Part shown: positions 8,081-28,917 of the stretch, piece by piece | Position numbering within the stretch: the first letter of the stretch is position 1 | Layout of the letters: every line of letters begins with the position of its first letter | Program-made: the position numbers and the translations under genes | Origin: Candidatus Undinarchaeales archaeon | GTDB lineage: Archaea > SpSt-1190 > JASMDC01 | DNA: 64,000 bases | Assembly: GCA_030753015.1 (NCBI GenBank) | Contig: JASMDC010000017.1 | Coordinates: 1-64,000 of the forward strand | Direction of reading: 5' to 3' | The notes under the pieces: model-generated | Told to the model about the DNA's origin: nothing | Database searches by the model: none | The model's input: the letters and a program-made list of their open reading frames with translations, nothing else

Positions 8081-9079
8081 TCATGTTCCCAACCTCCCTT
8101 TTTCTTTTTTAGTTCCCCAGGGTGTGGATTCGGTCCATACCCTGCGGAACTCTTTTTTGAAGCTCGCACCCAATCGCCCGTCCCGGATAACTAGGATGTT
8201 CTCGTCGTTCCCCATAAGTCCGCCCTTCGTCGGATTCGCCGAGCCGGTCATAACGGTCTCGTCATCGACGATGAATGTCTTGTGGTGCATCATACCCTTG
8301 TTCCCATCGGCCCTGACATCGCCGCCCGCAGACTGGACCGCAGTGCATCGTTCCCAGCGTCGCGCCTGTACGCGTTCGCATACTCCTGATACCGAGACCC
8401 CCCGATGGACGGCCCGGATCAGCGCGTCGGCCACGGCGCCGTCGGTGAAGGAGAAGGCAAGGAACCGGACATCCCGCTCAGCACCGTCTATCACGTCGAC
8501 GATCAGCTCACGGCAGCCATCGTCGGGGCAGAACGCGACATGGAAGGGCGTCCCACCCAGCTCCATCACGGGATCTACAGTGGGGTCTCCCGCGGAGAAC
8601 ACACCTTCCCATAGCTCCTCGAACTCAGCATTGTAGGCGGCCGCCAGGAGCCGTGAGCGTACTTGGAGGAGGACGTTATCGTTCCGCGCCGCGCCCCTAC
8701 CCGTCGGATTAAAGGAACAGGTCACGACCAGCTGGTCATCGATGATGCAGAACTTGTTGTGCATCAGTGCGCGCTCAGCATGTCCCCATCGGACCGGGAT
8801 CCCCGCCGGTCCGTCTCTCCCATGTACGACCACACGCGCGCTGGTTCGTCTGAGGGCGGCGACCACGGCTGGATGATCTACATCATAGAAAGCACAGCTC
8901 ACCGAGCGATGTGCTGAGAGGATCGCAGCGGCCAGGATATCCCCACAAGGCTCGCGCGGACAGAAGTGCACTGTTGGTGTAGGGGCAGCCTCATATGGGA
9001 TGCTGGGTTCCTGCCAATAAGCGGCCACAGCGACGCACACCACAAGGATGATAATCGGTAGAAGAGGCCTTAGTCCCAT
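8081..9079 (-). CDS. Membrane-anchored phospholipase D-like protein
   Basis: The 332-residue protein has an N-terminal signal anchor (about 5-22) and two HxKxxxxD catalytic motifs: H107/K109/D114 (MHNKFCIID) and H265/K267/D272 (MHHKTFIVD). Each is followed by the usual S-x-N segment (SFNPTG, SANPTK). Paired motifs make one active site in the PLD superfamily, which includes phospholipases and Nuc-type nucleases. The protein probably acts outside the membrane. Two Cys near residues 40-45 and two near 184-189 could form disulfides. The frame can be extended to GTG 9133, but ATG 9079 is 29 nt from a TATA box shared with the divergent gene at 9135. Confidence 0.82.
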   Translation of the reverse strand: MGLRPLLPIIILVVCVAVAAYWQEPSIPYEAAPTPTVHFCPREPCGDILAAAILSAHRSVSCAFYDVDHPAVVAALRRTSARVVVHGRDGPAGIPVRWGHAERALMHNKFCIIDDQLVVTCSFNPTGRGAARNDNVLLQVRSRLLAAAYNAEFEELWEGVFSAGDPTVDPVMELGGTPFHVAFCPDDGCRELIVDVIDGAERDVRFLAFSFTDGAVADALIRAVHRGVSVSGVCERVQARRWERCTAVQSAGGDVRADGNKGMMHHKTFIVDDETVMTGSANPTKGGLMGNDENILVIRDGRLGASFKKEFRRVWTESTPWGTKKEKGRLGT

Positions 9080-9104
9080 GAAAAGAAAGGCGGTCTGACA
9101 AACC

Positions 9105-9112
9105 TTTTTAAA
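9105..9112. promoter_or_regulatory. Bidirectional TATA box
   Basis: The near-symmetric TTTTTAAA (9105-9112) is centred 29 nt from the ATG at 9079 (minus) and 26 nt from the ATG at 9135 (plus). One TATA element therefore seems to drive two leaderless divergent transcripts: the PLD-like protein and the surface protein. Confidence 0.6.
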
Positions 9113-9134
9113 CCTGCGACGGGAACGTTCCACT

Positions 9135-10661
9135 ATGTCGGAATCCCTGGCGTCCTATGTGGCACAGCTGATGCGCCAGGGATACACGAACGACCAGGTG
9201 ATAGAGACCCTGCGGGAGCAGGGATGGGATAAGAAGGCTATCACTGAGGCCCTTGAGCAGGCAGCAGTGCTCGCAGATCAGCCGGATCCGCGGCTCGCAT
9301 CCTTTCCCAAGCCCTTGATCCCGCCGGTGGTAGTAGCCGGAGCCCTGGGTCTCGTTGTCGTGCTCGTGTTCGTATCCATGTTCATGGGCGGATCGGAGCC
9401 AGTACCGGTGGAACCGACACCCACACCGCGCCCTACTCCCGAACCTACCCCCGAAACAACGGTGGTACCCACACCCACGCCGAAACCGGAACCGAAAGGC
9501 TTGGGTGTCGACCTGATCGGAGTGACCGTACGCTCCAAGGACGAGACACAGTTCGTCCACCGGGACTTTACCGTTGACGCGATCAAGCTCGTGTACGATG
9601 TCCTCTCCGCACCTGGCGCCCAGGAGCGCTACGAGTCTATCCAGAAATTCGTGGGCTATTGTCAGAACAGGACCTTCCCTAATCCCGAGCTCGACCGTGA
9701 GCTCGAGGAAATGGATAAGGACATGGAGAACTACAAGTTCTACTTAGAGACGAACAACATCCCCAAGGCCACCGAGGTGCTGGAAAGCGATATCTTCGGA
9801 AGGTTCAGCGCTAAGAGTGTCGAGGGACCGCTGCCCGTCACCGTCTCGCTGAGCTACGGGACCGGCCTTGTCCTCAACCTCACCTCCACGACCAATCTCA
9901 TAGGCGTTAACACGCTCTGGGAGACGTCCCATCTGATCCAATCGAACATCCCTGACGACGTGTGGACCGGAGTATGGGACGAGGCGTGGAAGAACACGTT
10001 CCCCGCGGACGCCGACCGCTCGTCCTTCACTGTGGACATCCTCTACCTTGACCCGACCTCGCTCGAAGTGACCAGGCCGCGGGCGGCGGACTTCCGGTAC
10101 TACGGGAAGAGCGGTCTGCGACCGCTCCAGGGGAACGGCTACACGATCCCAAGCTTCGAGGCCGTGCTCGTCTACCTGATCGGCGGCGAGGTGTGCACCC
10201 AGACCGAGCGAACATGGTCCGGCGCGAAGGTCGGACAGTGGTCGTGCTCCGAGAGGGTGAAGGAGGGCGAGTTCTTCGTCAAGAAGAACGTGACCTTCGC
10301 GTTCCTTGATCTATCTCCCGTGCAGGGGGACCTCACGGCGGTCTACCGTACCGAGCTCAAGGCGAGCATCGGCGGCAATCCCATCGACTTCACGTTCCTA
10401 TTCCTTGAGGGGAAGGAGCCCTTCTCCGAATCATCGGTCACCGACCTCCTTGAGAAGCTCAAGCTCAAGATCTACGGTGAGCCGAAGACGGAAGGGACGG
10501 CAAAATGTCCCATCCATGTTGTTGACACCTTCACGGACGCACCGGTCAGGTACGTGGCCGCCGTTGCCGTCGGAGAGTACATGATGGTGATGTACGCCGA
10601 CGACAAGCCCAATCCCGCCTACTTCCGCAGCATAGCCGACGCGCTGTGCGCCAAGGTCTAG
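9135..10661 (+). CDS. Surface protein with N-terminal helical module, TM helix and large ectodomain
   Basis: The 508-residue protein starts with the shared helical module (residues 4-45, GYTNDQVIETLREQGWDKKA). A transmembrane helix (62-84) and a Pro/Thr spacer (about 88-121), probably extending from the envelope, come next. The ectodomain of about 380 residues has five cysteines and no family I recognise. Topology is N-in, C-out. The start is fixed by the shared TATA box 26 nt upstream. The stop overlaps that of the convergent UbiV-like gene by 4 nt. The module recurs at 1643, 16946, 17711 and 53939. Confidence 0.72.
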   Translation: MSESLASYVAQLMRQGYTNDQVIETLREQGWDKKAITEALEQAAVLADQPDPRLASFPKPLIPPVVVAGALGLVVVLVFVSMFMGGSEPVPVEPTPTPRPTPEPTPETTVVPTPTPKPEPKGLGVDLIGVTVRSKDETQFVHRDFTVDAIKLVYDVLSAPGAQERYESIQKFVGYCQNRTFPNPELDRELEEMDKDMENYKFYLETNNIPKATEVLESDIFGRFSAKSVEGPLPVTVSLSYGTGLVLNLTSTTNLIGVNTLWETSHLIQSNIPDDVWTGVWDEAWKNTFPADADRSSFTVDILYLDPTSLEVTRPRAADFRYYGKSGLRPLQGNGYTIPSFEAVLVYLIGGEVCTQTERTWSGAKVGQWSCSERVKEGEFFVKKNVTFAFLDLSPVQGDLTAVYRTELKASIGGNPIDFTFLFLEGKEPFSESSVTDLLEKLKLKIYGEPKTEGTAKCPIHVVDTFTDAPVRYVAAVAVGEYMMVMYADDKPNPAYFRSIADALCAKV

Positions 10662-11458
10662 ACCGGTACCTGAGGGGACTCGACCATTCGGTCGATGCCC
10701 ATGTGCACAAGCTCATCCTCGCTGGGGAGGGCGTCGTTCTTGGCGAACACAGCACATCCCTTGAGATAGAGGGGCACACCCATGGTAGGATGGTCGAGAC
10801 GGAAGAGCGAATCCTTGCAAGCCTGGGTGCAGGGGAACACGCCCCACTCGGGCCGTCCGGGGCGGGTAGAGGCGAGCCCTACCAGGCAGTACCTGCTGAT
10901 GGTGACGAACACGTACGGGTGATGGAATGAGCCATGAAAGGGATTCTTTCCCTCACCCAGGCGAAGGGAGACGCCTTGGAAGGGATTCTCCACCTCAACC
11001 CGGCGGACGCCACGCGAAGCTAGCAGGCTGCGCACCACGGGGACGTCCATGTTGGTCGTGCGGAACCGCTCCCAGGCTTCGGTCGTTAGGGCCTCCTTTG
11101 CTAGCATGAGGCGCGGACCACGCTTCTGCTTATGGATGATGCCGCCTACCACGGGCTCGAGCCGGCCCTCCTCGGCGACAACGTCGATCACACCCCAGTC
11201 GTTGGCGACGATCTCGGTACCGTCGGGGAGTTCGGCAAGGAGGGGCTTCAGCCGTGCAATGCCATCCTGTGTGACGGGCGGTGTGACGAAGGTGACGGCC
11301 ACACCCGCGTCATCAGCTCTCTTAAGGGCGCCTGTGAGCTCGGTGCGTGTGGGCATGAGGCGCTGGCAATAGCCGTTTCCCAGGTAGAGCCGGTCGTGCC
11401 CGGTCCAGTCGATTGTGTCCAACAACGCCACACGGGCGACGATGATCGCACGCTCCAT
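10658..11458 (-). CDS. U32-family protein, UbiV-like
   Basis: The 266-residue U32 protein has cysteines C31, C191, C210 and C214. This matches the pattern of the UbiV 4Fe-4S ligands: one N-terminal Cys, then a cluster ending C-x3-C. It also has an NDWG motif near residue 87. UbiU and UbiV form a heterodimer for oxygen-independent hydroxylation of ubiquinone; archaeal relatives have no assigned substrate. The frame is open upstream to 11701, but the true start is ATG 11458, which overlaps the stop of the upstream U32 gene (TGATG), as in a tightly coupled pair. Confidence 0.75.
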   Translation of the reverse strand: MERAIIVARVALLDTIDWTGHDRLYLGNGYCQRLMPTRTELTGALKRADDAGVAVTFVTPPVTQDGIARLKPLLAELPDGTEIVANDWGVIDVVAEEGRLEPVVGGIIHKQKRGPRLMLAKEALTTEAWERFRTTNMDVPVVRSLLASRGVRRVEVENPFQGVSLRLGEGKNPFHGSFHHPYVFVTISRYCLVGLASTRPGRPEWGVFPCTQACKDSLFRLDHPTMGVPLYLKGCAVFAKNDALPSEDELVHMGIDRMVESPQVPV

Positions 11459-12555
11459 CACCTCACCACCTCGGGCCAATAGCACTCGGCGGCCGAGCAG
11501 TTCCAGCCATAGAGCTCCATGTACAGGGCCCTGCATCGTTCCATGTATGCAGTACTGTCCTCCGATCCCTCGAGCTCCTCCAGCGCACGGCGCACGAGGA
11601 TGACGTCGTCCACCTTCTTGCTCGTGGGATGGATCCTGCCCTGGATCTTCAAGACGCTGATGCCCGCGTCGCGCATAGCGCCCAGGCCGCAGATACCGCA
11701 TCCGCTACCGCCCCAGTTGGGCGACCATTGCAGGCCGAACCGTTCCTGAACGGCTGTGGCGAGCTCATCGCTCCCCTCCAGGGGTTCGACATGGACCGCC
11801 GAGGAATTGAGGCAGAGATGGGTGGATGCTATACGCGCCACCGGTCCGGAGTACTGGACGGTCTTTGGGATGTGCCGCATGGCGCGAACGAGGTGCGCCC
11901 TGCTGCGGCCCAGACGGGGATTGAGGAGAGCCCACATCCCCTTTGCAGTGTCCTTGTGCCTGATCTCGGTAAGACCGTGGAAATAGGTGCACAGCCCCTC
12001 CACATAGGGGCAACGGGCGTTGAGCACGAATCCCTCAAGGGTGATGTCGGGGGCCGCTTGGGCTATGTCGGCGATCTCCTTGATGGAGAGGTGATGGGGG
12101 AGGATCACACGTGAGGCGCCTAGACGTTGGTAGAACCGGGCGGCCTGGGCGTTGAACACCGCGTTGATGGTGCTGACGTGGATATCGATGCCCACGTCGT
12201 TGTCGTGGAGGTGGGACATGAGGCCAAGATCGGCAACGATGAGGGCGTCAGCTTCCGCAGCGATGGCCTCCTCGACCTCCTCGACGAGATGTGTGAACTG
12301 TGCAGCGGAGTAGAAGTCCTGGTTAAATGCGACGTTCACGCGTATACCGAGGTCATGAGCGATGGTCAGGGCCTTGCGCAGTTCGTCATAGGACTGCATG
12401 GACGAGCGGGTGTACATCTCGCGGCTGACGCCTCCCATGTGAGTGTAGCGCTTGCGCCACCGCTCGGAGAGCACGGCGCAGTACAGTTCTGTGGCTCCCG
12501 CACGGGCGAGGGGTTCCACCTCCTCGGCCCGGTTGATGGGAGCAAGGATGTCCAT
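11458..12555 (-). CDS. U32-family protein, UbiU-like
   Basis: The 365-residue U32 'peptidase' family protein opens with MDILAPINRAEEVEPLARAG, the usual barrel start. Cysteines C182 and C189 (C-x6-C), C248 and C286 have spacing close to the UbiU cluster ligands. Downstream lies a UbiV-like partner, so this looks like an archaeal UbiUV-type complex, possibly hydroxylating a quinone or another aromatic or RNA substrate; tRNA/rRNA hydroxylation is also known for U32 proteins. ATG 12555 is chosen over the open frame to 12642 because the TATA-like ATTTATAC is centred about 27 nt upstream. Confidence 0.75.
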   Translation of the reverse strand: MDILAPINRAEEVEPLARAGATELYCAVLSERWRKRYTHMGGVSREMYTRSSMQSYDELRKALTIAHDLGIRVNVAFNQDFYSAAQFTHLVEEVEEAIAAEADALIVADLGLMSHLHDNDVGIDIHVSTINAVFNAQAARFYQRLGASRVILPHHLSIKEIADIAQAAPDITLEGFVLNARCPYVEGLCTYFHGLTEIRHKDTAKGMWALLNPRLGRSRAHLVRAMRHIPKTVQYSGPVARIASTHLCLNSSAVHVEPLEGSDELATAVQERFGLQWSPNWGGSGCGICGLGAMRDAGISVLKIQGRIHPTSKKVDDVILVRRALEELEGSEDSTAYMERCRALYMELYGWNCSAAECYWPEVVR

Positions 12556-12626
12556 CGCAAGCTTCCCCAACGGACAGGTATAAATGTGCTTCGACAGGGC
12601 TCCGCCGTGAGCACCCAATAAAAACG

Positions 12627-14441
12627 ATGAACGCGCATCCAATGCTTGTAATGGAGCCCGCGCTCTCGGTGGACGATCCTTTCGGTGTACTGGAACGACT
12701 GGAGTCCATGGCCTTCGAGCCCTCCGAGTGGCACGACCTCAACCTCGCTGCTCACGGGCTCTCCCTGACGGGACAGTTCGAGCGTGCAGCCATCGTCGAA
12801 CGTGTCAAGCAGAAGATACGCATCCTCCCACACCAGATCGAGACGGCGCTGCGTGTGCTCAATGACCTTGGTCATCGCGCATTATTGGCCGATGAGGTCG
12901 GGCTGGGCAAGACAGTGGAAGCGGGTATCGTGCTCAAGGAGTACCTCGTCCGTGGGCTTGTGGAACGCGTGCTCATCCTTACTCCCGCTCCTCTGGTCCG
13001 CCAGTGGCAGGGAGAGCTCGAAGAGAAGTTCGGTGAAGGGTTCATCACTCCTCTTGACGAGGGGTTCCGTGGGTTCGAGAAGGAGGACCGTCTCATCTGC
13101 TCAATGGACAGAGCCCGTCAGCCCAAGAACGCCCCCTTTGTCCAGGCCCGTCCCTGGGACCTACTCATCGTGGACGAGGCTCATCGTCTGCGCAACGTGG
13201 AGACCAAACTCCACCAGTTCGTGGCGGGGATCGACGCCCGTTACTTCCTAATGCTCACCGCGACACCCATCCAGAACAACCTCTTCGAGCTGTTCAACCT
13301 CATAGACCTCCTCAAACCGGGTCATCTGGGTACGCGGAACCAGTTCGCGGTCTATTTCGTGGGGGACCGTAAGGCACAGACGCTCGAGAACGAGGGGGAG
13401 CTGCGAGAGCTGCTGGGCCAGGTCATGGTGCGCAACCGCCGCGCCGAGGTCGGACTTCAGCTCCCCGACCGACACGTCCACGACATCATGCTTGATCCTT
13501 CTCCCCAGGAGGCCGAGCTGTACCGTCGGGTCATCGGATACATAGCGGACATGTACGACGAGGTGGACGAGGGCGCGGAGTTCGACGCTGAAGAGGCCCG
13601 TCGGACCACCCGTGGTATCGACCTGCTGCGGCTCATGACGCTCGAGCGTGAGCTCGTGTCGTCCAGCCAAGCCCTGGCCGCCACTCTGCGCAAGATAATC
13701 CCGCGCGAGCCCGATCCCGAGAAACGCGTGCTCTTGGACGAGCTGTACGAGCTGTGCCTGTCGGCCCGGGACAGCACCAAGGCTTGCCATCTCTTGGAGC
13801 TCGCTCGGCGCTTGGACACTCCCCTCATCGTGTTCACGCAGTTCATCTCCACCCAGGAGCACCTGCGGGGACGTCTGGAGGCCGCAGGCTTGGCGCCCGT
13901 GGTGTTCAACGGCAGCATGTCACCATCCGACAAGGAGTCCGCTATCCAGCGTTTCAAGGAGCGGGGCGGTGTGCTCCTGTGCACTGACTCGGGGAGCGAG
14001 GGCCGGAACCTCCAGTTCGCCAACGTGCTGGTGAACTACGATCTTCCCTGGAATCCCATGCGTCTGGAGCAGCGTATCGGCCGGATCCACCGCATTGGCC
14101 AGGAACGGGACGTGCATGTGTTCAACCTCACGCTCGCGGGTACGATCGAGGACCACATCCTGACAACGCTCTATCGCAAGATCGACCTCGTCACCGCGGC
14201 CGTGGGCGACATGGACCTTATCCTTTCCAAGCTGCCCGATGGCGTGTCGTTCGAGCGCCGGTTGTTCGAGCTGTCGCTGCGCATCAAGGACAAGCGTTCC
14301 TTCGACGAGGGGATGAAGGGGCTCGCTGATGAGATGGCGGAGGCCAAGGAGCTGGCTGCAAAGGTGCACCAGTTGGATGCCCGGGTGCTCGAGCGCTTCG
14401 ACCTATCGTCCCTGGAGGACGCGGGGGTGCGTATCAAGTGA
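12627..14441 (+). CDS. SNF2-family DNA translocase/helicase
   Basis: The 604-residue superfamily 2 ATPase has Walker A in ADEVGLGKT (about 88-96), DEAH box VDEAHR (182-187), motif III LTATPIQNN, and motif VI QRIGRIHRIGQ in the C-terminal RecA domain. It is of the RapA/SNF2 type that moves on double-stranded DNA to remodel protein-DNA complexes. It lacks the accessory domains of RapA. The next gene starts inside its stop codon (GTGA), so the two products probably act together. Start: ATG 12627, though ATG 12642 is about 25 nt from a TATA-like AATAAAAA and may be the leaderless start. Confidence 0.85.
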   Translation: MNAHPMLVMEPALSVDDPFGVLERLESMAFEPSEWHDLNLAAHGLSLTGQFERAAIVERVKQKIRILPHQIETALRVLNDLGHRALLADEVGLGKTVEAGIVLKEYLVRGLVERVLILTPAPLVRQWQGELEEKFGEGFITPLDEGFRGFEKEDRLICSMDRARQPKNAPFVQARPWDLLIVDEAHRLRNVETKLHQFVAGIDARYFLMLTATPIQNNLFELFNLIDLLKPGHLGTRNQFAVYFVGDRKAQTLENEGELRELLGQVMVRNRRAEVGLQLPDRHVHDIMLDPSPQEAELYRRVIGYIADMYDEVDEGAEFDAEEARRTTRGIDLLRLMTLERELVSSSQALAATLRKIIPREPDPEKRVLLDELYELCLSARDSTKACHLLELARRLDTPLIVFTQFISTQEHLRGRLEAAGLAPVVFNGSMSPSDKESAIQRFKERGGVLLCTDSGSEGRNLQFANVLVNYDLPWNPMRLEQRIGRIHRIGQERDVHVFNLTLAGTIEDHILTTLYRKIDLVTAAVGDMDLILSKLPDGVSFERRLFELSLRIKDKRSFDEGMKGLADEMAEAKELAAKVHQLDARVLERFDLSSLEDAGVRIK

Positions 14442-17710: not shown

Positions 17711-20700
17711 TCACCGCGTGCAGCAGCGGAACCCGAAGTTCGACTGGGAGTCGACCGGCTTGAGGTAAAGTCCCAAGCAGAAGCAACCCCTGCTGGGTGA
17801 TCCGTCAGGGACTTCGCTGTGACCGCAGCCCCGGAAGAAGACGTTCCCCTCTCCACCGGACGACGGCCGGTAGACGAGGTCGTCACCATAACGCCTCGGG
17901 TCCTTCCCGAGCAGCGTTCCAACGGTCTGGGTTGGGACGCCATCGTGCTGAAGCCACGCCTCACTGTGCACCTTGGCGTCCGTCCATTCACCGATGTTCC
18001 CGATCATATCGTGTACACCTGCGGCCGATGTGCAGTTCTCGTGAGAACCGGTCGGGCGGTTGTCGAATCCCTTGGTGTGGCACCCGTACTGTTCGTGGGA
18101 CTCCTCGAAGATGAGGTCGTACCGCGTTCGGTTCAGGCCGCAGGACGCCACCCACTCGTAGTCCTTGCAAAGGTATTTCCCGGCCGCCTGGCACGCCATA
18201 CGCGCCTCGTACCAGGTGACATCGGTCCACGGCAGGGCACCGGGCACCGAGGCGGCCATGCTCCCCGCCCCTCGCGATGCCTCGTACTTGTCGATGCAGA
18301 ATCCACCGCACTGAGCGATGAACGCCATCCCCGACGGGCAGCTCCGAGGAGGTACGGGCTCCTCGGCGCAGATGGGATCAAGGGCCACCTCCAGGCTCGG
18401 GTAGACATCGAGCTGCGCCCGGGGAAGTGCCCCCTCAGGCGGCACCCAGGGCTCCGGCGTGGCGGCCGGTCCCGGTGTCGTTGTTGGCTCGGGAGTGGGC
18501 GTGCCCTCGCCCGGTGGCCCCTCTGTCGGCTCTGGGCTGGTGCCGGGAGGCGGGGCACGGGGATCGTGGCAGCAGCGGAATCCCGTCGCCCCTTCCGAGT
18601 ACGTGGGACCGCTCACCAGGTGGAGGTAGAAGCAGCCGGCCCACGCCGACATCCCCTCGATGGGTGACGAGCGGGAGCCGCCCCGCAGGAAAGGATTCCC
18701 CTCCTTGAGCCCCGATGGATTGTGGATGATCCAGTCGTCGCCGTACCTTGCCGCCTCATCGCCGAGGTACGCACCGACGCTCCCGTCGGTACCGGCCCAC
18801 GTCTCGCTGGGCACCGTTGCGTTCGTCCACTCGCGCACGTTCCCTACCATGTCGTACACGCCCTCGGCTGATACGCAGTTGAGGCGGAAACCCGAAGCGA
18901 CGTTGTTGCGTCCGTGGGTGTAGCACCCGAATCCTTCACCATGCTCCTCCTCGGTGAGTTGGTACCGTTCACCATCGAGGTTGCACGCCGCCATCCATTC
19001 GTAGTCCTTACACAGGTGCTTACCCGCGGCCTCGCAGGCGTGCGATGCCTCCTCCCAGGTGATGCTGGCCCATGGCAGAGCGCCCTCCCGGGACGTTGCG
19101 GCCCCATCCTCGCCCCTGGACGCCTCGTACTTGTCGATGCAGAATCCACCGCACTGGTCGATGAACGCCATCGCCTCGGGGCACGGCAGCACTTCGGATG
19201 ACGGCTCAGAGCACACAGGGTCCAATGCGACCGTGAGATCCGCGTAGTTGTCGAGTTCTTCCCGTGGCCACGGTCCATGCCCCTCTGGGGGACCGGGCGT
19301 GGCCGTCGGTCCGCTGCCTGGTGGCTCGTCAACCGGTTTGGAGGAGGGATCGAGCGGATCGGTCCCAGCGTCCACCTCCTCGCCATCGGAGGCGCCATCG
19401 TCGTCGGTGTCCTCGTCGTTTGGATCGGTCCTGTGCTCCTTCTCGACATCGTTGGTCAGTCCGTCCTCGTCAGGGTCCTCGGTGCCCGCGTCCTCTGGCG
19501 TGCTGGAGGGATCGAGCGGATCGGTCCCGGCGTCCACCTCCTCGCCATCGGAAGCGCCGTCGTCGTCGGTGTCCTCGTCGTTTGGATCGGTCCCGTGCAC
19601 CCGCTCGGTCGCGTTTGTTAGCCCGTCGCCATCAGGATCGTCACTGGCGCCACCGTCGACAGGGGGCTCGGCGACCTCCTCCTCGCAGTCCGCATCGGTG
19701 CCAACGTCACAGCCCAGGGGGCAGACCCCGTCCCCGCCACGGCATCCCGGACCAGTGGTCTGGTTCCCGAAGTCCAGCTCGTACCGCTCGGTTGCGTACA
19801 AGCTGTAGCCAGCCTCGTCCGTACCCGGGTGGCAATTAGACGCTTCGCACGTGTCGCAGTCCTCTGAGGTGAGGGTGCATACGTGGATCGTGAGATTCCA
19901 CGAGCCAGCGGGCATCTCCTTCGGGAGCGTCAGGTCGATTCTTGGGAAGCCGATCCTGTCACCCGCCACACGTGTGGTGGTCACACCCAGGAAGAACGGA
20001 ACCCGGTCGGTGCGCCCGAGGTTGGGATTGATACAGAAGCATGTTTCTTTGCTCTCTTCGTTGGCGAGGGCCATGATGATCTGCCGCAAGGGGACCTCGC
20101 TGGAAATAGTATCCTTCGGTTCGATGTCCAATGCGATCAATGATCCCGTGACCGCCAGTTCCTGACTGATCCGCTCCTCCACCACCTTCGCGTCCACATC
20201 CTCGGGTGTGGGCGTGGGGGTCTCCGGTGCCTCATAGACGCACGAGGCCGACACCCAGTCGCCGATGGTCACGCATTCACCCGTCTTGGCGTCGACCGTA
20301 CACGACACGGTGCCCACCGCAGTGCCGGCCTGGATCCGCTCCAGGAGACGTGTCAGTTCCCGGGTGCCCTCGAAGGTGCAGCTGACAACGACGTCCACGA
20401 GCCGGCCGGCCTGATCGACGACCCGACGTTGTTCCTTTACGAGGTCATCGGGTGTCACACCTGAAGCGAACAAGGATTCCACGGCGACGTCATCGTAATC
20501 GGCCTCGACCTTGCTGAGCACCTTGGTGAGCGTGCACCCGCCGGCGGGAGCCACTTCAATGGAATAAGAGACCGTGGTCGTCCGATGTAGGTGGGGCTGG
20601 ACCTCGATGGTGACAGTGTGATCGATGGACGCCGTGCGGCAGGTCCTCGAGGCCTCTATGAAGCACGTGAAGTCCGTACCGCATCCGATGGGGGTCCGGT

Positions 20701-21271
20701 CCTCGATACGACAATCGGCGTCGTCGGAATCGGTGCAGCCCTCGGGACAGCGGCCGTCGCCGTCACGACATCGAGGGACGGGAGTGTGGACGCACTCCAT
20801 GGGATGGCCCGTGCACTCGTCCCTTGTATCGGGATCACTGTCGTCGCAGTCGTCGTCAGAGCAGCACTCGGACTCTCTACATACGGTCCCGTCGACGTAC
20901 TGGCACGGGGCGCACTGGGGGCCGGTGCACGCGTCATCGATGCAGGTCTGGTCGCCGGGACAACCGGCATCACGGCAGCACGTCGTGGACATCTCACCGG
21001 GTTCACTGATGCCGTTGCCGCACTGTGGGCCTGTAAAGTGGCCGCCCAGGGCGACAGCACTGATGACGATGACGACGACGGCAATGGCGACGAGCTGACC
21101 GATGGTCACACTTGAGTGAGCGGGGACTTTTGGCGGGGGGCCGTACAGGGCGCGGGCCACGACGTCCGGCGGGAATCCCTTGTACTGCACCAGGTAGTAG
21201 TTGATTTGCTGAGGATTGTACCCGTTGCTTCGGAGATATTCCACCCATGCCTCCACCTGACCTTCGGGCAT
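17711..21271 (-). CDS. Giant multidomain surface protein with two FGE-sulfatase-type domains
   Basis: The 1186-residue protein contains, in order: N-terminal helical module (3-43); transmembrane helix (56-77); Cys-rich region with CxxDxDC-type repeats (84-187); an unassigned domain (200-350); the CFC domain shared with its neighbour (405-500); a second small Cys-rich segment (510-530); two thrombospondin type 3-like acidic repeats (544-645, DGDGLTN...[11 protein letters not shown]), probably calcium-binding; a linker; and two formylglycine-generating-enzyme-type domains (about 697-920 and 985-1186). The FGE domains carry [16 protein letters not shown] and VGN(V/I)xEWT motifs. Such domains often act as binding or structural modules rather than sulfatase activators. 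TATA-like TCTTAAGAAC lies 28 nt before ATG 21271. Confidence 0.82.
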
Positions 21272-21339: not shown

Positions 21340-22095
21340 CTACATCTTCGCGCCGCACCGGGCGCAGAAGGCGGTCCTTCGCTTGTTGACGAACCCACAG
21401 GTATTGCAGGGGAATCCCTCAGGGCCCTTGTCCTCTTCAAATTCCTCATCATCGGTCGGCTCGGGTGGTGGTCTCACGGCCTCGCCCACGGGGGAGATAC
21501 GCTCAGCGATGCTGCCACCACTAGCTGCCGGGGGAGGCTCCGGTTGTGCCATGGCTCCCCCATACTCGTATCCCTCGGATGTCGTGCTCGGCTCTTTCTG
21601 AGGTGCTGCGAGCTGTTCCTCAAGGGCATCGATCCGTGCTGCGAGCTCTTTGATGCGTTCGGCCGTTTCAGCAGCGCCAGCGCCAGCGGCGTCAAGGCCG
21701 TCGTGCGACTCGGTCCGCGCCGTCTCTAGCGCCCCGGTCAGTTCGTCCACGCGCTTCTTCAGGTCAAGCTCCTCGCTCTCCACACGGGAGAGCGTCTCCA
21801 GCTCCTCCTTGGAAAGGTGGGCCTCCACGGGGGCCGCTGGCTTCTCGGTTTTTGGAACCTCCGCTGGTGCATGGTGTACAACGACCTCCTCATCGTCAGA
21901 ATCACCCGCGGTAGATGGGAGCATCAGGGCGCTTCCCAGACCTGCGAGGGCTAACAGTGCTCCGACACCTATGAGGAACGTGGCCTTGAAGTCCATGACC
22001 ATCTTCTCCACGCCCAGCATGAGCATGACGATGCCCACGGCAAGGATGGCAGGGGGAAGGATGGCGAGGATGCGCCGTGGATCCGGTGCTGACAT
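21340..22095 (-). CDS. Two-TM coiled-coil zinc-ribbon membrane protein
   Basis: The 251-residue protein has transmembrane helices at about 9-28 and 38-59, an acidic linker, a coiled coil (about 95-170) and a C-terminal zinc ribbon with CNTC and CARC (about 230-248). The bulk probably faces the cytoplasm, making this a membrane-tethered adaptor. Its ATG directly follows the stop of the E2-like repeat gene (TAGATG), so the two are co-translated and may form a complex at the membrane. No named family was recognised. Confidence 0.72.
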   Translation of the reverse strand: MSAPDPRRILAILPPAILAVGIVMLMLGVEKMVMDFKATFLIGVGALLALAGLGSALMLPSTAGDSDDEEVVVHHAPAEVPKTEKPAAPVEAHLSKEELETLSRVESEELDLKKRVDELTGALETARTESHDGLDAAGAGAAETAERIKELAARIDALEEQLAAPQKEPSTTSEGYEYGGAMAQPEPPPAASGGSIAERISPVGEAVRPPPEPTDDEEFEEDKGPEGFPCNTCGFVNKRRTAFCARCGAKM

Positions 22096-23940
22096 CTAAC
22101 GGAACACCCCCATGACCTTGTCAAGCAGCCCTTTCTTCGCTTCGGGGCGCAGGGTCTTCACCAGCTTGGCCACGGTCTTGAGGTCCGTCCGCCTGAAGTG
22201 CTTCTGGGTTATGAACTCCTCCTTCACTCGACCGTCGGTCTCGACGTTGTCGTTGATGAATGGTTTGGGATCAACGACTGACACCCTGGGGGGTGAGAGG
22301 GGGTAGTTCTGTGAGAGGCGGACCTCGTAGTGCACCTTCTTGAGCTGGGCGCCATATAGCGCCTTATACTCTCCGCTCCAGAGGTAGATGTTGTTCGCGA
22401 GCGGCTTGAACGTGGTGACCATATCGGAGACGAGGATGTTCCCGATCTCCTCGAAGAACTCCTCGGAGCTGGTGATCTCGAACTTACGTACCCTCAGACG
22501 CTCCTTCACGAGCTCCAATGCCTCGCACAGGCTCATATCACCCTCCCATTCCAGGCCAGAACCGGGGTGGCCGAAGAGTACGAGCCCGGTAGGGGAATGG
22601 ATGGCGCCGAAGAGGAGGATCCGCTCGGTGACATCGAGCCGGGAGTCGAACTTGATCATAGGAGGGGTCTGCGGGAAGTACGGATCCACCAGGACCACGG
22701 CCTCGTAGGTGCGGCTGGTCAACACTCCTTCACCTTTGATGGTCACCGTCCAGCCCCCCAGGACCTCCCTGTTCAGGTCCTGTGCGTACTGTCCCACCTC
22801 GTTGTCGGGGATCTGGGTGATGGAAGGCTCGTACTTCTCGAGGTAGCCCGCCTCGTAGGAGAGACGGGTCGTAGGGTCCATGGAGACAAGGTCTGTGCGC
22901 TTGAGGGCACGGATGTCCTCAAGGACCTCAACGATATGGGTCTCCTCGGTCCATGTTGACGTGAGCCGGGGGATTACTACCGAGCCCCCCACGTCGATAT
23001 GATCATTGGGGAACACGTTACGAAGGGACACGCGCGGGGGAACCCGGGGGAATTCCTTGGGCACGTCCACGGCAAGGTCGAGCGTGATGCCCTGATGGGT
23101 CGTCACCGGCCCCTCCCATCGCTCCACGTTGCCCTTCACGGGGCGCAGCTGGCTCTGACGCAGGAGCTGATAGGTCTCCAGGTACAGCCGCGGTACCTCG
23201 CGGTGCACGCGCTCGATGCGACGGCGCAGGGCATCCAGCACACCGCTCAGATCGGGATCCTTGCTCCACTGGTACGTGGCCAGGTTCTCGAGCTTGGCAT
23301 AGCCCTCCTCGTCAGTTAGACGGGGATGGACGATCCCTACACGCACTGAGGGGGGGCTCTTGGGATACCCCTGGGGGAGCTTCACGACCACTTTCTCGCT
23401 CTCCAGACGCCCCGTGAACGTGGCCTTGCCGGACTCCTGGAATCCCTGCTTGAGCAGCAGACGCCGGTCCTTCCCGGCCTCGACACGTTCCCCGATATCG
23501 TCTAGGCGCGTGTAAATGAACTCGCCCGGAGGTATCTGCTCCTCGAACGAGTAACTGTCCAGGGTGAACCGCGCCGGTGAGCGTGGATAGCCAGGAGGTA
23601 GTAGCACCTCCATCCGCTTTCCCTTGTGCTTTCCTGTGAGCGTGACCCCGCTGGCATCCTCCTTGTGCGAGAATCCCTCCTCGTGCAGGAATGAGACCTC
23701 GAGCGTCTTCTTGATCTCGCCGTCAAGGAACTGGGCGAGCGGAAGGCCGTCGGGGATGGGGACATTCCGGTTCACTCCCCCGCCGGAGATGCTCGCGCTC
23801 TTGGTGCCCTCCACCTGGAGCTTCACCTGGACCGTCTTGCCATGGAACTCACCACGGAGGTCGTAGATGGAGTCGCCGACGAACGAGAATCCGCTCCCAC
23901 GGAGCTGATGGATCTCGCGGAGGATACGTGGATCGGGCAT
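22096..23940 (-). CDS. Tandem E2/UBC-like fold protein without catalytic cysteines
   Basis: The 614-residue protein repeats the hallmark of ubiquitin-conjugating (UBC/RWD) folds: a strand ending in (Y/F)P-x-x-P(P/A) followed by a hydrophobic strand. Copies are at 115-125 (PPGYPRSPARF), 189-199 (PQGYPKSPPSV), 294-304 (PKEFPRVPPRV), 419-429 (DPYFPQTPPMI) and 543-553 (SQNYPLSPPRV). Several are followed by E2-like tails, for example HIDVGGS...W and a helix (313-347), and NDNVETDGRV (563-572). The only cysteine is C472, in a helix, so no unit can be an E2 thioester enzyme. The role is probably scaffold or binding. Start: ATG 23940, because TTATTAAT about 25 nt upstream is a TATA box; the frame is open to 24207 within the upstream gene. 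Confidence 0.78.
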   Translation of the reverse strand: MPDPRILREIHQLRGSGFSFVGDSIYDLRGEFHGKTVQVKLQVEGTKSASISGGGVNRNVPIPDGLPLAQFLDGEIKKTLEVSFLHEEGFSHKEDASGVTLTGKHKGKRMEVLLPPGYPRSPARFTLDSYSFEEQIPPGEFIYTRLDDIGERVEAGKDRRLLLKQGFQESGKATFTGRLESEKVVVKLPQGYPKSPPSVRVGIVHPRLTDEEGYAKLENLATYQWSKDPDLSGVLDALRRRIERVHREVPRLYLETYQLLRQSQLRPVKGNVERWEGPVTTHQGITLDLAVDVPKEFPRVPPRVSLRNVFPNDHIDVGGSVVIPRLTSTWTEETHIVEVLEDIRALKRTDLVSMDPTTRLSYEAGYLEKYEPSITQIPDNEVGQYAQDLNREVLGGWTVTIKGEGVLTSRTYEAVVLVDPYFPQTPPMIKFDSRLDVTERILLFGAIHSPTGLVLFGHPGSGLEWEGDMSLCEALELVKERLRVRKFEITSSEEFFEEIGNILVSDMVTTFKPLANNIYLWSGEYKALYGAQLKKVHYEVRLSQNYPLSPPRVSVVDPKPFINDNVETDGRVKEEFITQKHFRRTDLKTVAKLVKTLRPEAKKGLLDKVMGVFR

Positions 23941-23989: not shown

Positions 23990-26860
23990 TCACGCCGGAA
24001 TGCACTGTCGCGGTAGTATCCAGGATCCTGGATTGCGTGCGAAGTACACGGCCCGAGTGGCATTGTGCTCGAACAGTACACCGCTACGCTCGGTGATGAC
24101 AGAAACGGTGAGCTCTTCCCATCCCTCCAATGCCTTATCGCAGAATCGGAACGGTTCAAGGTGGACGAGGTAGCCGCCGGGTGCCGATGTGACGTACAGC
24201 GACTCACGAACGGATCCGCCCAGATATGCCCGCACCGTCCGGGCAGCAGGGACTATATCGCGACCCGCCACGGACACAAGCACGTCCATGTCGAAGCCCC
24301 ACGCCTGGAGCACTTGGTAGATGGGCTCCTCACGCGAGCCCGGTCGTACCTCTTCGATGGTCAGACGCGTCTCCCCGGGGGCTACGAGAGTGATATGGTC
24401 ATTTCCGCTTCCCGTGCGGCCCAGACGTGCCACGCTGACATCCACGGTGGCGCGGCCAGCGCTCAGGGAGCCGGAGACCACGAGCGTCAGCACCCACTGA
24501 CGCAAAGCGGGCACGTAACGCATGGAGAACACCCGCGCCTCCGTACCGCGGACGGAGGCCCGCACGTCATCGCGTGTAAGGGTTGTGACGGGAGTCCCGT
24601 CCCGGGCGTCCACCACGGAGACGTAGGCATGAAGGAACGCACCCTGTTGTGCTTCCTTGAGTGGGACAGTCCTGGGTTCGAGGGACTGTACGATCACCTC
24701 GTAGCCGACGGTCATGGAACCGTACCAGAGGGGGATGGAGGACCGTGCCGCCCCCAGCTCGCCGTCGTGGACTAATTTGAGGAACAGTGGGACGGACCCT
24801 GGTGAGAGCGTCCCTGCAAGGTGGGGCGGGAGCCGGGCACGGACCCGCCAGACCTCGTCCCGCCACGCCACCTCCACGTTCTCTGGAGGGAGCGGGAGGT
24901 CGCCCACGACAAGTGTGATCGAATCGGCCGAGATCCCTCTGGAGATCGGACGACTCTGCAGGCGCACCGAGAGGTCGAGGCTGACGACCACCTCGCCAGT
25001 GGCCAGGGTGTCCATGTCCAACGCTTCGGGCCGGACGTCCTCCACATGGACCGAGAGACCTTCCGGTGAGCAGCCATCCTCGCGACATATCTCGCCCGGA
25101 CCGCAGACGTGACCGAACGAGGTCTCTTCGTCCGTGCACAGGCAATGGGACGGGCACAGTTCCCACGGGAGAAGGGCCGGGATCCGTTGGAGTCCAACGC
25201 GCGCCACACGCTCGCCGTCCTCCATCGCTACGACGAAAGGTGGTTCGTCCCCGCCGCCGGCGCATCCGCTGGCCGTGCACTGCTGACCGTGCTCGCACAC
25301 GTCCGCCAACCGACCGTCCTCGGTGAAGCACGCGCACACCGGGTGGCGGTCGGAGGCCGGTACGCACCGCCCGCCGGGGCCCATGCAGCGAAGTGTGATG
25401 TCCCTCGTGCCCAGTATTCCGTCGCGGCACAGGCGATCGTAATCGGTACCCCTGAGGCCGGTGGGCACCCACGGCTCGACCTCGAGCGGAACTGTGTGAA
25501 CGCCCGATTCGTCGCCACGGAACGCCGTGAGACGGAGCTGGTAATGGCCGGGCGGGACCGTCTCGGGGAGCGTGAAGGCGATCTTACCGCAGGGATAGGT
25601 ACGGCGGACGAGGATGCGCTCCTCCGTCCCGGTGTAGTTGATCAGCGCCACCTCGCACCGCTCCCCGGGTGTGTCAACCCACATGCGGACATCCTCGCCC
25701 ACCATGTACGAGGGCTGCTCGAGAGTTACCGGCAGAGGCACCGACCGCCCGGGCTTAAGGAAATGGACAATGGTGTTGGCCGTGGCCGGGAGCCCCATAG
25801 GATTGAACATGGTGACCCGCACCACGTACTCTCCATCCTCGGACATTGTCGAGAGGGTGAGGGGGACGTAGAGGCAGGATGGAAGCCCGTACTGAGCGTT
25901 CACGACATCGCCCTCATGCAGCAGTTCGACAGCACAGCTCGACATGCCAGCTCCGGCGAAGGCGCCCACGACCATTGTCTCGCCGAGGAGGAAGGTGTCC
26001 GTCACACGACCGGCGCCATCACCCACTACAAGTGTCACGGGGAAGAGGCGCGGCCTGACGAGAACCTCGGCAGTGGCGTTGATCAGTTCGTTCGAATCCT
26101 TGAGCTGGAACAGGGTGTGGATGATCACAGGTGTGGCGGGGCATTGGCCCCCTTCGTACTCCTCGCATCCCATCCCCGCGGGGTCGAACTCGAGAAGGAA
26201 CGACTCACAGGAAAAGCACGTGCGGGCTTGTCCAAGGGACTGACCGTCGGTGGAGAACAATCCCCACACAGCGAACTCGACCTCATTGCCGAAGAAGAAC
26301 GTCGCGATATCTCCTGCATAGTACTGATCGAGGTCGGTGAGCAGCTGGCCATTGATGATACAGTCCTCGGTCCCGTCCTGACACTGGAGGGGGAACTCCA
26401 GGCCCACCCGCTCCTTGCGCGTGAGATGGCTGGTCGCCAGTCCCGTGGTGGGGAGGGTATAGGTGACGGTGCGTTCACCGACGTCCTCTGCCTCGTCCAC
26501 GAGCAGGAACCCGCGGGGAGTGTAGGAGAACTTGAGGGTGGGTCGCAGCTCCTGGAGCGAGTACGAACGCGCCACCGTGAGCAAGGGCTCGACTGTGGTG
26601 AACCGAAGCGTGATCCTGTCACCTGTCACGTCGTAGGTGCACGCGCGTGTGTGCGCTGGCGCGAGCTGGGCGCAAGCGCGGTCGAGCACACCTGGCTTGA
26701 GTAGCGTGTCAATCAGCTCATCGCCCACGCCGTCGAGGGTTACGGTGATATGGTTGAGTGGTGAGCGTGATACATCGACCTCCTCGAGGATGGTGTCCAC
26801 TACTACCGCTGTCGCGGGAGCGATCACCAGGAGCAAGGCCAGAAGGATGGCGGTCCTCAT
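23990..26860 (-). CDS. Large secreted Cys-rich protein (module 1)
   Basis: The 956-residue protein has a classical signal peptide (1-20, LLALLLVIAPATA), a long series of probable beta-sandwich domains and, in the middle, two short Cys-rich knots (patterns CxCFxxDGxxADVCxxG and CLCTDEETSFGHVCGPGE). It is a paralog of the 915-residue protein at 60106: signal peptide, domain order, knots and terminal GNPG/RNPG-x-W motif all match. ATG 26860 overlaps the stop of the upstream pilin-like gene (ATGA) and has a GGGGTG ribosome site; an upstream GTG is less likely. No membrane helix follows the signal peptide, so it is exported, perhaps held by the pilin-like partner. Confidence 0.78.
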   Translation of the reverse strand: MRTAILLALLLVIAPATAVVVDTILEEVDVSRSPLNHITVTLDGVGDELIDTLLKPGVLDRACAQLAPAHTRACTYDVTGDRITLRFTTVEPLLTVARSYSLQELRPTLKFSYTPRGFLLVDEAEDVGERTVTYTLPTTGLATSHLTRKERVGLEFPLQCQDGTEDCIINGQLLTDLDQYYAGDIATFFFGNEVEFAVWGLFSTDGQSLGQARTCFSCESFLLEFDPAGMGCEEYEGGQCPATPVIIHTLFQLKDSNELINATAEVLVRPRLFPVTLVVGDGAGRVTDTFLLGETMVVGAFAGAGMSSCAVELLHEGDVVNAQYGLPSCLYVPLTLSTMSEDGEYVVRVTMFNPMGLPATANTIVHFLKPGRSVPLPVTLEQPSYMVGEDVRMWVDTPGERCEVALINYTGTEERILVRRTYPCGKIAFTLPETVPPGHYQLRLTAFRGDESGVHTVPLEVEPWVPTGLRGTDYDRLCRDGILGTRDITLRCMGPGGRCVPASDRHPVCACFTEDGRLADVCEHGQQCTASGCAGGGDEPPFVVAMEDGERVARVGLQRIPALLPWELCPSHCLCTDEETSFGHVCGPGEICREDGCSPEGLSVHVEDVRPEALDMDTLATGEVVVSLDLSVRLQSRPISRGISADSITLVVGDLPLPPENVEVAWRDEVWRVRARLPPHLAGTLSPGSVPLFLKLVHDGELGAARSSIPLWYGSMTVGYEVIVQSLEPRTVPLKEAQQGAFLHAYVSVVDARDGTPVTTLTRDDVRASVRGTEARVFSMRYVPALRQWVLTLVVSGSLSAGRATVDVSVARLGRTGSGNDHITLVAPGETRLTIEEVRPGSREEPIYQVLQAWGFDMDVLVSVAGRDIVPAARTVRAYLGGSVRESLYVTSAPGGYLVHLEPFRFCDKALEGWEELTVSVITERSGVLFEHNATRAVYFARNPGSWILPRQCIPA

Positions 26861-28917
26861 GCAGCGCACCCCCGTACCCCTGCTACCGGTACGAAACCGT
26901 GGTCGGTCTTCGTCGTGAACAGTGGGTCCATCACCACATCGTGCTCGCTATCCCCCTCGATGGTTAGGACGGTGGCGACGGTGCGCACCTTGTACACAGG
27001 GGTTCCGTCCTGGTCCGTTGGTGTGGCAACGAGGATGTACCGACCAGGGAGCACCCGGGGGACGACATACCGTCCGTCGGCGTCGGTCCGTACTTCGAGC
27101 GTCTCCAGGTCGGGATCGACGGGAAGGAGCGTCAGTCGTACCGCTGCTGGTGGCGAGCCGGGGACGAATGATAGAGGCCGCATGCCGACGATATCATTAC
27201 AGGGTCCATCAGTCACAGTATCTGACCGGTGGTCGAGGCACCCCAGTGTGAGCGTGTCCGCGCACAGTATGGTTGTGTTCTCGACCACGAGCCCTGACAG
27301 GGACGCATACTGTGGGAGCTCCACATCGATCGGTCCCTGAGCAGGGAGCGCGACGTTCACGGAAGTACCGCCTACGCCCTCAGTGTCGAGGGGGACCACC
27401 GTGAGCCTGCGGATACCGCAGGGGAGGCCTGAAAGAAGGGTCTCGCCCGTCACCTCGAAGGTCAGCGCTCCACCGCACGGCTCCACTATGACCAGTGCCC
27501 GTTCTGCACCTAAAGGTCTGATCGTTGCTTCGCAGGTCCCCGTGCAGGCGAGGTCCACCTCGCGAGGGGGTCCATCGGGGGCCCTAGGGAGGATCGTGGC
27601 TCCACCTGTGACCAACCAAGGAACTATCACGAACCGCAACCGGAGGGGGCGCATGAGGGATCCGGAGGGAAGGCGTCCGGCAGGCGTGAGATCGGTGAGC
27701 TCCACCTCGAGAGGGAACTGGATGTCGTACACGGCCCGGTAGCTCTTGTACCATGGAGCGCGACCTGAGCACAGTTCGACCGCGCATGGTCGCTCATCTC
27801 TGGCGACTCCACGCACCGTGATGGTACGTTCGCCACCGTTGACAGAGAGATTGAGGAGGGGATAGGCGCTCGCGGCGCCCTCGCCCTTGTCACCAAGGCG
27901 GAGCCGCGCCGACCACGAGAGGGAGCGCATGAGGGCCACTGGGTCGGCAGCGTCCTCGTCGACACCGGCTAGCTCGGCGCCAAGGCGGCTGAACAGGCGT
28001 TCGGACCGCATACGTGCAGCGAAGAGGGTAGCGGCTACGCCAAGGTCCTCTCCGATAGCTCTTCGCAGGGCCTGTTCGTCCAGGGAGACTTCGCCCTCCT
28101 CTGTCATACAGAAGCCAGGATGGCGGCGTCCTCTGGCGTCCGGAAGGGAGAACGGATCGCAGGTGAGGTCCGCAGTGGGGCCGGGCACACGGGGATCCCG
28201 CTCCATAAGGAAGGCGGCCAGGCTCTCGACTCCGCGGTACCAGAGGTTATCGACCTCGCCGGATTCTGGGCCCGCCTCGGTGTACAGTCGTGCAACGGTA
28301 CGCGCGATGCGTACAAGCCGTAGGAGACGTAGCGGTAGCTCAACGGCCACTTGCTCCTTGATGGAGGAGCTGGCCCCGCCATGGGTGATGGTCAGGGGGA
28401 TCTCTGCGGAGAGGCGAACGAAGGCGTTCCCGACCTCCACGTCATTGGCCCCGAGGGAGATGCGGTTCCTCTCAAGCTCCAATCCGTCTATCCCGTCCAC
28501 GCCCGTGGCAGCGAGCTCCCGGATGTTAGCCTCCAAGCGACGAGCGACCGCCTCGCGCACCATGGCGCGGACCACATCATCAGTGGGAAGGTTCACCACA
28601 CGACCCCCGAGCACGAACACAGGGACGCCGTCCATAGATGGCTCCGGTACCGCTGAGGGTGCGAATCCTCCGCTTTGGGCGACCTCGTCCACGGCCTGTG
28701 CCAGAGATTCCCGTACCACCCCTTCCAGGATCTCGTGGAGCCGTACCGACTCGTCACGCACTTCAACCGCCTGTCGAGTGTCCTCCTTGATATCCTGCTC
28801 GACCTGGCGGGGTGCCCGCAGGGCCAGGAACATCACCGTGACCACTAGCGCGAGCGCAACAATGGCAAGGATAACGGTCTGACCTCTGCTGTTGAAAAGG
28901 TCCTTCCCCCTGGACAC
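26857..28917 (-). CDS. Pilin-like N-terminal anchor protein (module 1)
   Basis: The 686-residue protein begins with a short basic leader ending SRGQ, followed by a hydrophobic helix (about 14-34). This resembles archaeal class III (type IV prepilin-like) signals, where cleavage falls between G and Q, but the +5 Glu of pilins is missing. The large remainder is extracellular. Residues about 60-150 match the protein at 62846 (shared pattern GVPVFV.GGRVVNLPT versus GVPFFF.KGNIVNIPT), so they are paralogs. GTG 28917 is chosen: GGAGGAG lies 6 nt upstream and TATA-like AATTAAACC about 26 nt upstream; a TTG at 28932 is the alternative. It is coupled to the downstream Cys-rich gene. Confidence 0.75.
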   Translation of the reverse strand: MSRGKDLFNSRGQTVILAIVALALVVTVMFLALRAPRQVEQDIKEDTRQAVEVRDESVRLHEILEGVVRESLAQAVDEVAQSGGFAPSAVPEPSMDGVPVFVLGGRVVNLPTDDVVRAMVREAVARRLEANIRELAATGVDGIDGLELERNRISLGANDVEVGNAFVRLSAEIPLTITHGGASSSIKEQVAVELPLRLLRLVRIARTVARLYTEAGPESGEVDNLWYRGVESLAAFLMERDPRVPGPTADLTCDPFSLPDARGRRHPGFCMTEEGEVSLDEQALRRAIGEDLGVAATLFAARMRSERLFSRLGAELAGVDEDAADPVALMRSLSWSARLRLGDKGEGAASAYPLLNLSVNGGERTITVRGVARDERPCAVELCSGRAPWYKSYRAVYDIQFPLEVELTDLTPAGRLPSGSLMRPLRLRFVIVPWLVTGGATILPRAPDGPPREVDLACTGTCEATIRPLGAERALVIVEPCGGALTFEVTGETLLSGLPCGIRRLTVVPLDTEGVGGTSVNVALPAQGPIDVELPQYASLSGLVVENTTILCADTLTLGCLDHRSDTVTDGPCNDIVGMRPLSFVPGSPPAAVRLTLLPVDPDLETLEVRTDADGRYVVPRVLPGRYILVATPTDQDGTPVYKVRTVATVLTIEGDSEHDVVMDPLFTTKTDHGFVPVAGVRGCAA

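What the first reader, a model, noticed from the sequence alone, without database searches (positions are those of the whole stretch)
22096..23940. Archaeal protein of at least five tandem E2/UBC-like folds, all lacking the catalytic Cys
Five copies of the E2 YPxxPP strand motif at about 70-130-residue spacing, with E2-like following segments, sit in one 614-residue chain having a single, misplaced cysteine. Catalytic E2s in archaea are single-domain. A multi-unit inactive chain would be a scaffold, perhaps analogous to UEV or RWD proteins, and I know of no described family like it. It is coupled (TAGATG) to a membrane zinc-ribbon protein.
Basis: partly seen in the sequence, partly recalled or inferred. 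Interest (0 to 1): 0.85.

Follow-up and report, generated by a model that had tools for sequence, protein, structure and literature searches.

The report
Archaeal chain of dead E2-like domains
A non-Asgard archaeon encodes one protein made of at least five, probably six, ubiquitin-conjugating-enzyme-like folds in a row, all without the catalytic cysteine; it most likely works as a scaffold, and such chains have until now been described mainly from eukaryotes.

Summary
P0001 (window 22096-23940, minus strand, 614 aa) carries four exact [YF]PxxPP motifs plus YPRSPA (0.013 exact motifs expected by chance) and one cysteine (C472), outside any E2 catalytic position. Pfam UQ_con hits the whole protein at E 3e-23. 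Units 3, 4, 5 and 6 each match E2/UEV models alone (E 8e-5, 7e-8, 4.5e-3, 8e-5). Unit 4 models confidently (pLDDT 90+), and its nearest solved structures are TSG101 UEV domains (Z 12.6). Unit 2 is a clear internal repeat of unit 3. Unit 1 folds as a minimal alpha-beta4-alpha domain with borderline matches to BRCC45/BRE, FANCL and E2s. The chain is therefore 5-6 Cys-less UBC folds.

"No described family like it" is too strong. Eukaryotic BRE (UEV-RWD-UEV) works on this principle, and Asgard genomes hold a separate chain of four Cys-less UBC units plus a RING (found here). P0001 has no full-length relative in the 600-odd archaeal genomes searched, plasmids or phages. Its genome also encodes a Ubl-E2(Cys)-JAMM-E1 cluster on another contig. 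Best reading: a multivalent pseudo-E2 scaffold, possibly membrane-recruited by the adjoining membrane zinc-ribbon protein. Ubl binding is inferred, not shown.

The parts
22096..23940 (-). P0001, 614-aa chain of 5-6 Cys-less UBC/UEV-like units (whole gene)
   Evidence: Pfam UQ_con E 3.1e-23, RWD 3.2e-9, UEV 1.1e-8; shuffle controls
23743..23940 (-). Unit D1 (residues 1-66): minimal alpha-beta4(-alpha) unit without the YPxxPP motif
   Evidence: Single-sequence AF2 pLDDT about 68-84 for residues 1-90 or so; VIA best BRISC/BRCA1-A chain C (BRE) Z 7.9/7.3, FANCL Z 5.0, UBE2W Z 5.0, but also non-E2 folds and below Z 8; weak repeat of D2, p 0.015; no Pfam hit
23518..23742 (-). Unit D2 (residues 67-141): YPRSPA unit lacking the post-motif part of an E2
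   Evidence: Repeat of D3, p<=0.0005; alpha-beta4 topology in the full-length model, pLDDT about 78-89, but not reproduced alone
23203..23517 (-). Unit D3 (residues 142-246): YPKSPP ... HPRL ... W ... LxxVLxxL
   Evidence: UEV HMM i-E 1.2e-8; Pfam UQ_con 7.9e-5 alone
22885..23202 (-). Unit D4 (residues 247-352): complete UEV, FPRVPP
   Evidence: Pfam UQ_con 7.1e-8 alone; UEV HMM 1.1e-15; model pLDDT 90+; TSG101 UEV Z 12.6, rmsd 2.2, 103 residues; Asgard UEVs to 37% identity
22465..22884 (-). Unit D5 (residues 353-492): FPQTPP unit holding the only Cys (C472)
   Evidence: Pfam UQ_con 4.5e-3 alone; all 14 PDB matches at E<=10 are E2/UEV, best a Plasmodium E2-family chain (2q0v, 3e95_C) at 5e-4
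22099..22464 (-). Unit D6 (residues 493-614): YPLSPP unit, no Trp (HF instead)
   Evidence: UEV HMM 3.4e-10; Pfam UQ_con 8.1e-5 alone; repeat of D4 p<=0.0005
21340..22095 (-). P0002, 251 aa: two TM segments, coiled coil, C-terminal four-Cys zinc ribbon; starts at the base after the stop of P0001
   Evidence: TAGATG junction; hydropathy and Cys positions; only sub-cut-off zinc-ribbon Pfam hits
23990..26869 (-). Upstream gene, 959 aa, one N-terminal hydrophobic segment, Cys-rich (probably exported), 49 bp before P0001
   Evidence: no Pfam hit
17711..21271 (-). Downstream gene, 1186 aa: TM segment, TSP3 repeats, two FGE-sulfatase-like domains
   Evidence: Pfam FGE-sulfatase 2.2e-19, TSP3_bac 3e-18

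Best explanation
P0001 is a non-catalytic scaffold made by repeated duplication of a UEV/RWD-type (E2-like) fold: four recognisable UBC units (D3-D6), a shortened one (D2), and probably a sixth minimal one (D1). With no catalytic Cys it cannot carry a thioester. Its units should instead dock partner proteins, as UEV and RWD domains do. Most likely it holds several partners, or several copies of the genome's ubiquitin-like modifier, on one cytosolic chain. It may be held at the membrane by P0002, which is translated directly after it. Shown here: the repeats, the UBC fold for D4 by model and for D3, D5 and D6 by sequence, the missing Cys, the gene coupling, and a Ubl-E2-JAMM-E1 cluster in the same genome. 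Inferred: scaffolding, Ubl binding, and membrane recruitment.
For: UQ_con 3.1e-23 and UEV 1.1e-8 for the chain. D3-D6 match alone. D4 is nearest to TSG101 UEV. Internal repeats. Cys column empty in all units. Ubl with C-terminal GG, Cys-bearing E2, JAMM and ThiF-type E1 on contig C68 of the same genome. Stop-start junction with P0002. Precedent: BRE (UEV-RWD-UEV) is a scaffold whose complex with MERIT40 binds ubiquitin (PMC7692841).
Against: No partner or Ubl binding has been shown. The Ubl cluster is on another contig. Neighbours are mostly membrane or exported proteins with no ubiquitin theme. No full-length homologue exists to show conserved surfaces. D3, D5 and D6 were not modelled with confidence (mostly pLDDT < 50, no alignment there), so their fold rests on sequence. 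The model of D4 was built with UEVs in its alignment, which favours UEV matches.
Confidence: 0.62

Rival explanations
1. The UBC folds are generic RWD-like protein-docking modules of a membrane or secretion complex encoded by this gene run, with no link to any ubiquitin-like modifier.
For: All six genes from 28932 down to 16946 are on one strand with small gaps, and the other five each carry a hydrophobic TM/signal-like segment. RWD domain 3.2e-9. The Ubl cluster is elsewhere. D1 also resembles type III secretion chaperones (STM2138 Z 6.8, ExsC Z 6.0).
Against: D4 and D5 are closest to UEVs, which usually work with ubiquitin, and the genome does have a Ubl system.
Confidence: 0.3
2. P0001 is an E2-variant partner of the catalytic E2 on contig C68, as Mms2/UEV1 is of Ubc13, orienting the acceptor Ubl.
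For: A single Cys-bearing E2 exists in the genome. Most PDB matches of D5 alone are UBE2V1/V2.
Against: Different contig; five or six units where one would do; no co-evolution data.
Confidence: 0.12
3. Contamination or recent transfer from a eukaryote or Asgard archaeon.
For: The bin is 3.85 Mb with 5% contamination while its class relatives are 0.6-1.1 Mb. UEVs are otherwise Asgard/eukaryotic.
Against: The contig carries archaeal LonB (up to 64% identity to archaea), diphthine synthase and TYW1 above cut-off. P0001's third-position GC (0.81) lies within its neighbours' range (0.66-0.85). No close homologue in 227 Asgard genomes.
Confidence: 0.04

Closest known systems
BRE/BRCC45/BABAM2 of BRISC and BRCA1-A (UEV-RWD-UEV)
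   Same: One chain of tandem Cys-less UBC folds acting as scaffold; D1's best structural rows are chain C of BRISC and BRCA1-A, taken to be BRE from its 383-residue length (Z 7.9, 7.3)
   Different: Three units, not 5-6; eukaryotic; Pfam BRE not found in P0001 at E<=5; no MPN partner next door
Asgard tandem UBC + RING family (L048, L049, L050, A3)
   Same: Four Cys-less UBC/RWD units in one 550-620 aa archaeal chain
   Different: Ends in a RING-H2-like module; profile aligns only its unit 1 with D4; not shown to be an orthologue
Vps23/TSG101 UEV (ESCRT-I), Asgard and eukaryotic
   Same: Closest fold and sequence to D4
   Different: Single UEV followed by coiled coil and steadiness box, both absent in P0001; no Snf7 match in this genome
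FANCL (UBC-like units then RING) and D-RWD proteins such as CENP-O
   Same: Tandem inactive UBC folds; weak D1 rows (FANCL Z 5.0)
   Different: Eukaryotic; FANCL has a catalytic RING (own knowledge); P0001 has none
Bacterial inactive E2/RWD-like domain of polyUbl operons (Iyer et al. 2006, PMC1779556)
   Same: Prokaryotic Cys-less UBC fold tied to a Ubl/E1/JAB system
   Different: Single domain, in the operon itself

Membership tests
UBC (E2-like) fold superfamily | Sequence match of the repeated unit to UBC models | tested here: met
   D3-D6 individually; whole chain 3.1e-23
UBC (E2-like) fold superfamily | Confident UBC structure of the unit | tested here: met
   D4 only: pLDDT 90+, TSG101 UEV Z 12.6; D1 borderline, D2/D3/D5/D6 unresolved by structure
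Catalytic E2 | Active-site Cys after the HPN region | tested here: not met
   No Cys in that column in any unit; only C472 in a helix
Vps23/TSG101 (ESCRT-I) | Vps23 core/steadiness box after the UEV | tested here: not met
   No Vps23_core in P0001 at E<=5; real Asgard Vps23 shows it
BRE/BRCC45 | Match to the Pfam BRE model (PF06113) | tested here: not met
   No hit at E<=5
BRE/BRCC45 | Assembly with MPN/JAMM and VWA partners | not testable with these tools
   A JAMM exists on contig C68 but interaction is unknown
Asgard tandem UBC-RING family | C-terminal RING-H2-like zinc module | tested here: not met
   P0001 has one Cys and ends in unit D6
Asgard tandem UBC-RING family | Collinear profile match over several units | tested here: not met
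   hhalign aligns one unit only, 93% probability, 92 columns
FANCL | Tandem UBC-like units followed by RING | tested here: not met
   No RING in P0001; fold likeness of D1 only, inconclusive

The most novel reading that the evidence does not exclude
A new, lineage-specific multivalent reader of a ubiquitin-like modifier: a 5-6-unit pseudo-E2 scaffold in a non-Asgard archaeon, tethered to the membrane by its translationally coupled partner, evolved in parallel with BRE/FANCL-type chains.
Probability: 0.3. Interest if true: 0.78.

Novelty: new variant of a known kind. Interest (0 to 1): 0.6.

Why it matters
Tandem inactive E2 folds are the backbone of important eukaryotic complexes (BRISC, BRCA1-A, FANCL), and their prokaryotic roots are unknown. 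An archaeal chain of five or six such units outside Asgard, in a genome that also has a Ubl-E2-JAMM-E1 set, suggests that pseudo-E2 scaffolding arose more than once or is older than eukaryotes. It can be tested directly with recombinant proteins. The Asgard UBC-RING chains found on the way are a second case.

Tried and rejected
Orthologues of P0001: none in its phylum (10 genomes), in 394 archaeal genomes except single UEV/E2 matches, in 227 Asgard genomes beyond D4, in genome contigs or viral contigs pattern scans (these reach close relatives only), or in plasmids and phages. The Asgard chain as an orthologue: not supported. An ESCRT link in this genome: Snf7 not found; the control rang in only 1 of 14 genomes. 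RING in this genome: no zf-RING_2 match, but the controls did not ring either, so absence is not shown. BRE model in Asgard genomes: none, controls silent. UBC_like PF23009 in Asgard genomes: three sub-cut-off hits. The structure of D1-D2 alone did not fix D2, and Foldseek gave nothing significant for it (E >= 0.1). In the full-length model D3, D5 and most of D6 stayed below pLDDT 50 for want of homologues. A defence-system reading: only weak E1-E2/E2 PADLOC hits, through the UBC fold. Naming the lineage: the LonB search gives archaea of many phyla at 54-64%, so no name is offered. The literature searches found no report of an archaeal multi-UBC chain, but subscription papers are not covered.

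Full report
OBSERVATION. The 614-aa ORF lies at 22096-23940 on the minus strand. It has four exact [YF]PxxPP motifs and one YPRSPA, at residues 118, 192, 297, 422 and 546; shuffling the protein gives 0.013 exact motifs on average and never more than one. A UEV profile built from Asgard UEVs and E2s finds five domains (107.7 bits), against at most 6.1 bits in 1,000 shuffles and none in the reversed sequence. The only Cys is C472. The stop TAG is followed directly by the ATG of P0002.

WHAT IT IS. Pfam matches the chain to UQ_con (3.1e-23), RWD (3.2e-9) and UEV (1.1e-8). Cut into units, D3 (142-246; residues 157-246 scanned), D4 (247-352), D5 (353-492) and D6 (493-614) each match UQ_con on their own, at 7.9e-5, 7.1e-8, 4.5e-3 and 8.1e-5. 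D5 alone finds only E2/UEV chains in the PDB: a Plasmodium E2-family protein at 5e-4, then UBE2V1 and UBE2V2. The aligned units share the strand motif and the later 'W...LxxVLxxI' helix segment (D6 has HF for W, and D2 lacks most of it). None has Cys in the catalytic column. Local alignments tie D2-D3, D3-D4, D3-D6 and D4-D6 together at p<=0.0005, D2-D4 and D2-D5 at about 0.007-0.008, and D1-D2 weakly at 0.015 (15 pairs tested).

STRUCTURE. AlphaFold2, with Asgard UEVs aligned on D4, gives pLDDT above 90 for most of D4. Residues 1-155 reach about 60-89, and D3, D5 and most of D6 stay below 50. D4's nearest solved structures are the TSG101 UEV domains (Z 12.6, rmsd 2.2, 103 residues). Residues 1-165 folded alone give an alpha-beta4-alpha unit for about 1-90 (pLDDT 71-84). 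Its best rows are chain C of the BRISC and BRCA1-A complexes, taken to be BRE from its length (Z 7.9, 7.3), with FANCL, UBE2W, VPS37A and CENP-O/Mcm21 rows further down; Mediator subunits and secretion chaperones appear too, and all are below Z 8. So D1 is plausibly, not certainly, a sixth unit. D2 was not resolved alone.

SURROUNDINGS. The contig is archaeal: LonB, diphthine synthase and TYW1 are above their cut-offs. P0001 lies in a run of six same-strand genes (28932 down to 16946); the others carry hydrophobic TM or signal-like segments. P0002 has two TM segments, a coiled coil and a four-Cys ribbon whose spacing fits both generic zinc ribbons and RanBP2-type fingers; no Pfam model passes its cut-off. 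The same genome carries, on contig C68, a protein ending in GGSR that looks like a ubiquitin-like modifier (reading of the sequence; no Pfam hit), an E2 with its Cys (UQ_con 5.8e-12), a JAMM (Prok-JAB 1.3e-10) and an E1-like ThiF protein (1.3e-52), beside SWIM-finger proteins. A modifier to be read therefore probably exists, though unlinked.

DISTRIBUTION. Among 394 archaeal genomes 22 have a UQ_con match. P0001 itself finds only single UEV/E2 domains, through unit D4, in Asgard-type genomes and nothing else in its own phylum. The survey turned up a separate Asgard family: four Cys-less UBC/RWD units plus a C-terminal RING-H2-like module. All 16 aligned members hit UQ_con and RWD, 12 hit UBC_like, two hit BRE (best 3.7e-4) and one FANCL_d1 (8.5e-4). 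Against the PDB, its first unit resembles UBE2K, its last Ubc13, and its end RBX1, all weakly. Profile comparison aligns only one of its units with P0001, so the two chains share a building principle, not demonstrable orthology.

FUNCTION. UEV and RWD domains dock proteins, often ubiquitin. BRE is the clearest precedent: UEV-RWD-UEV, a scaffold whose complex with MERIT40 binds ubiquitin at about 20 uM (PMC7692841). Bacterial polyUbl operons contain a single inactive E2-like domain (PMC1779556). The best-supported model is a multivalent pseudo-E2 scaffold in the cytosol, possibly tethered by P0002. Ubl reading is inferred. The main rival is a generic docking scaffold for the membrane complex encoded by this run.

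NOVELTY. New variant of a known kind: more units than the precedents considered here, outside Asgard and eukaryotes, with no relative found.

Noticed in passing
L048:475-2226, L049:3431-5092, L050:1956-3611, L063-L082: Asgard family of four tandem Cys-less UBC/RWD units plus a C-terminal RING-H2-like module, 550-620 aa. Weak hits to Pfam BRE (2 of 16 members) and FANCL_d1 (1 of 16) and, in 12 of 16, UBC_like. Possible archaeal counterpart of FANCL-type E3s; no report found in the open literature searched.
   Followed up: partly
L007 (G000:C68) 2316-13032: Ubiquitin-like cluster in the window's genome: Ubl-like protein ending GGSR, Cys-bearing E2, JAMM, 897-aa ThiF-type E1, and SWIM-finger proteins (sub-cut-off). 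SWIM fingers beside a Ubl system look unusual.
   Followed up: partly
G000, whole genome: 3.85 Mb assembly whose nine class relatives are only 0.6-1.1 Mb, with 5% contamination reported: either an unusually large member of a small-genome archaeal phylum or a partly mixed bin.
   Followed up: no
window 17711-21271: 1186-aa membrane protein with TSP3 repeats and two FGE-sulfatase-like domains in tandem.
   Followed up: no
window 21340-22095: Zinc ribbon of P0002 (CNTCGFVNKRRTAFCARCG) has the C-x2-C-x3-N-x6-C-x2-C spacing shared by generic zinc ribbons and ubiquitin-binding NZF fingers; which it is remains open.
   Followed up: no
L196:4078-4449: Truncated extra copy of the Asgard UBC chain, with broken frames, about 4 kb upstream of the intact gene.
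   Followed up: no
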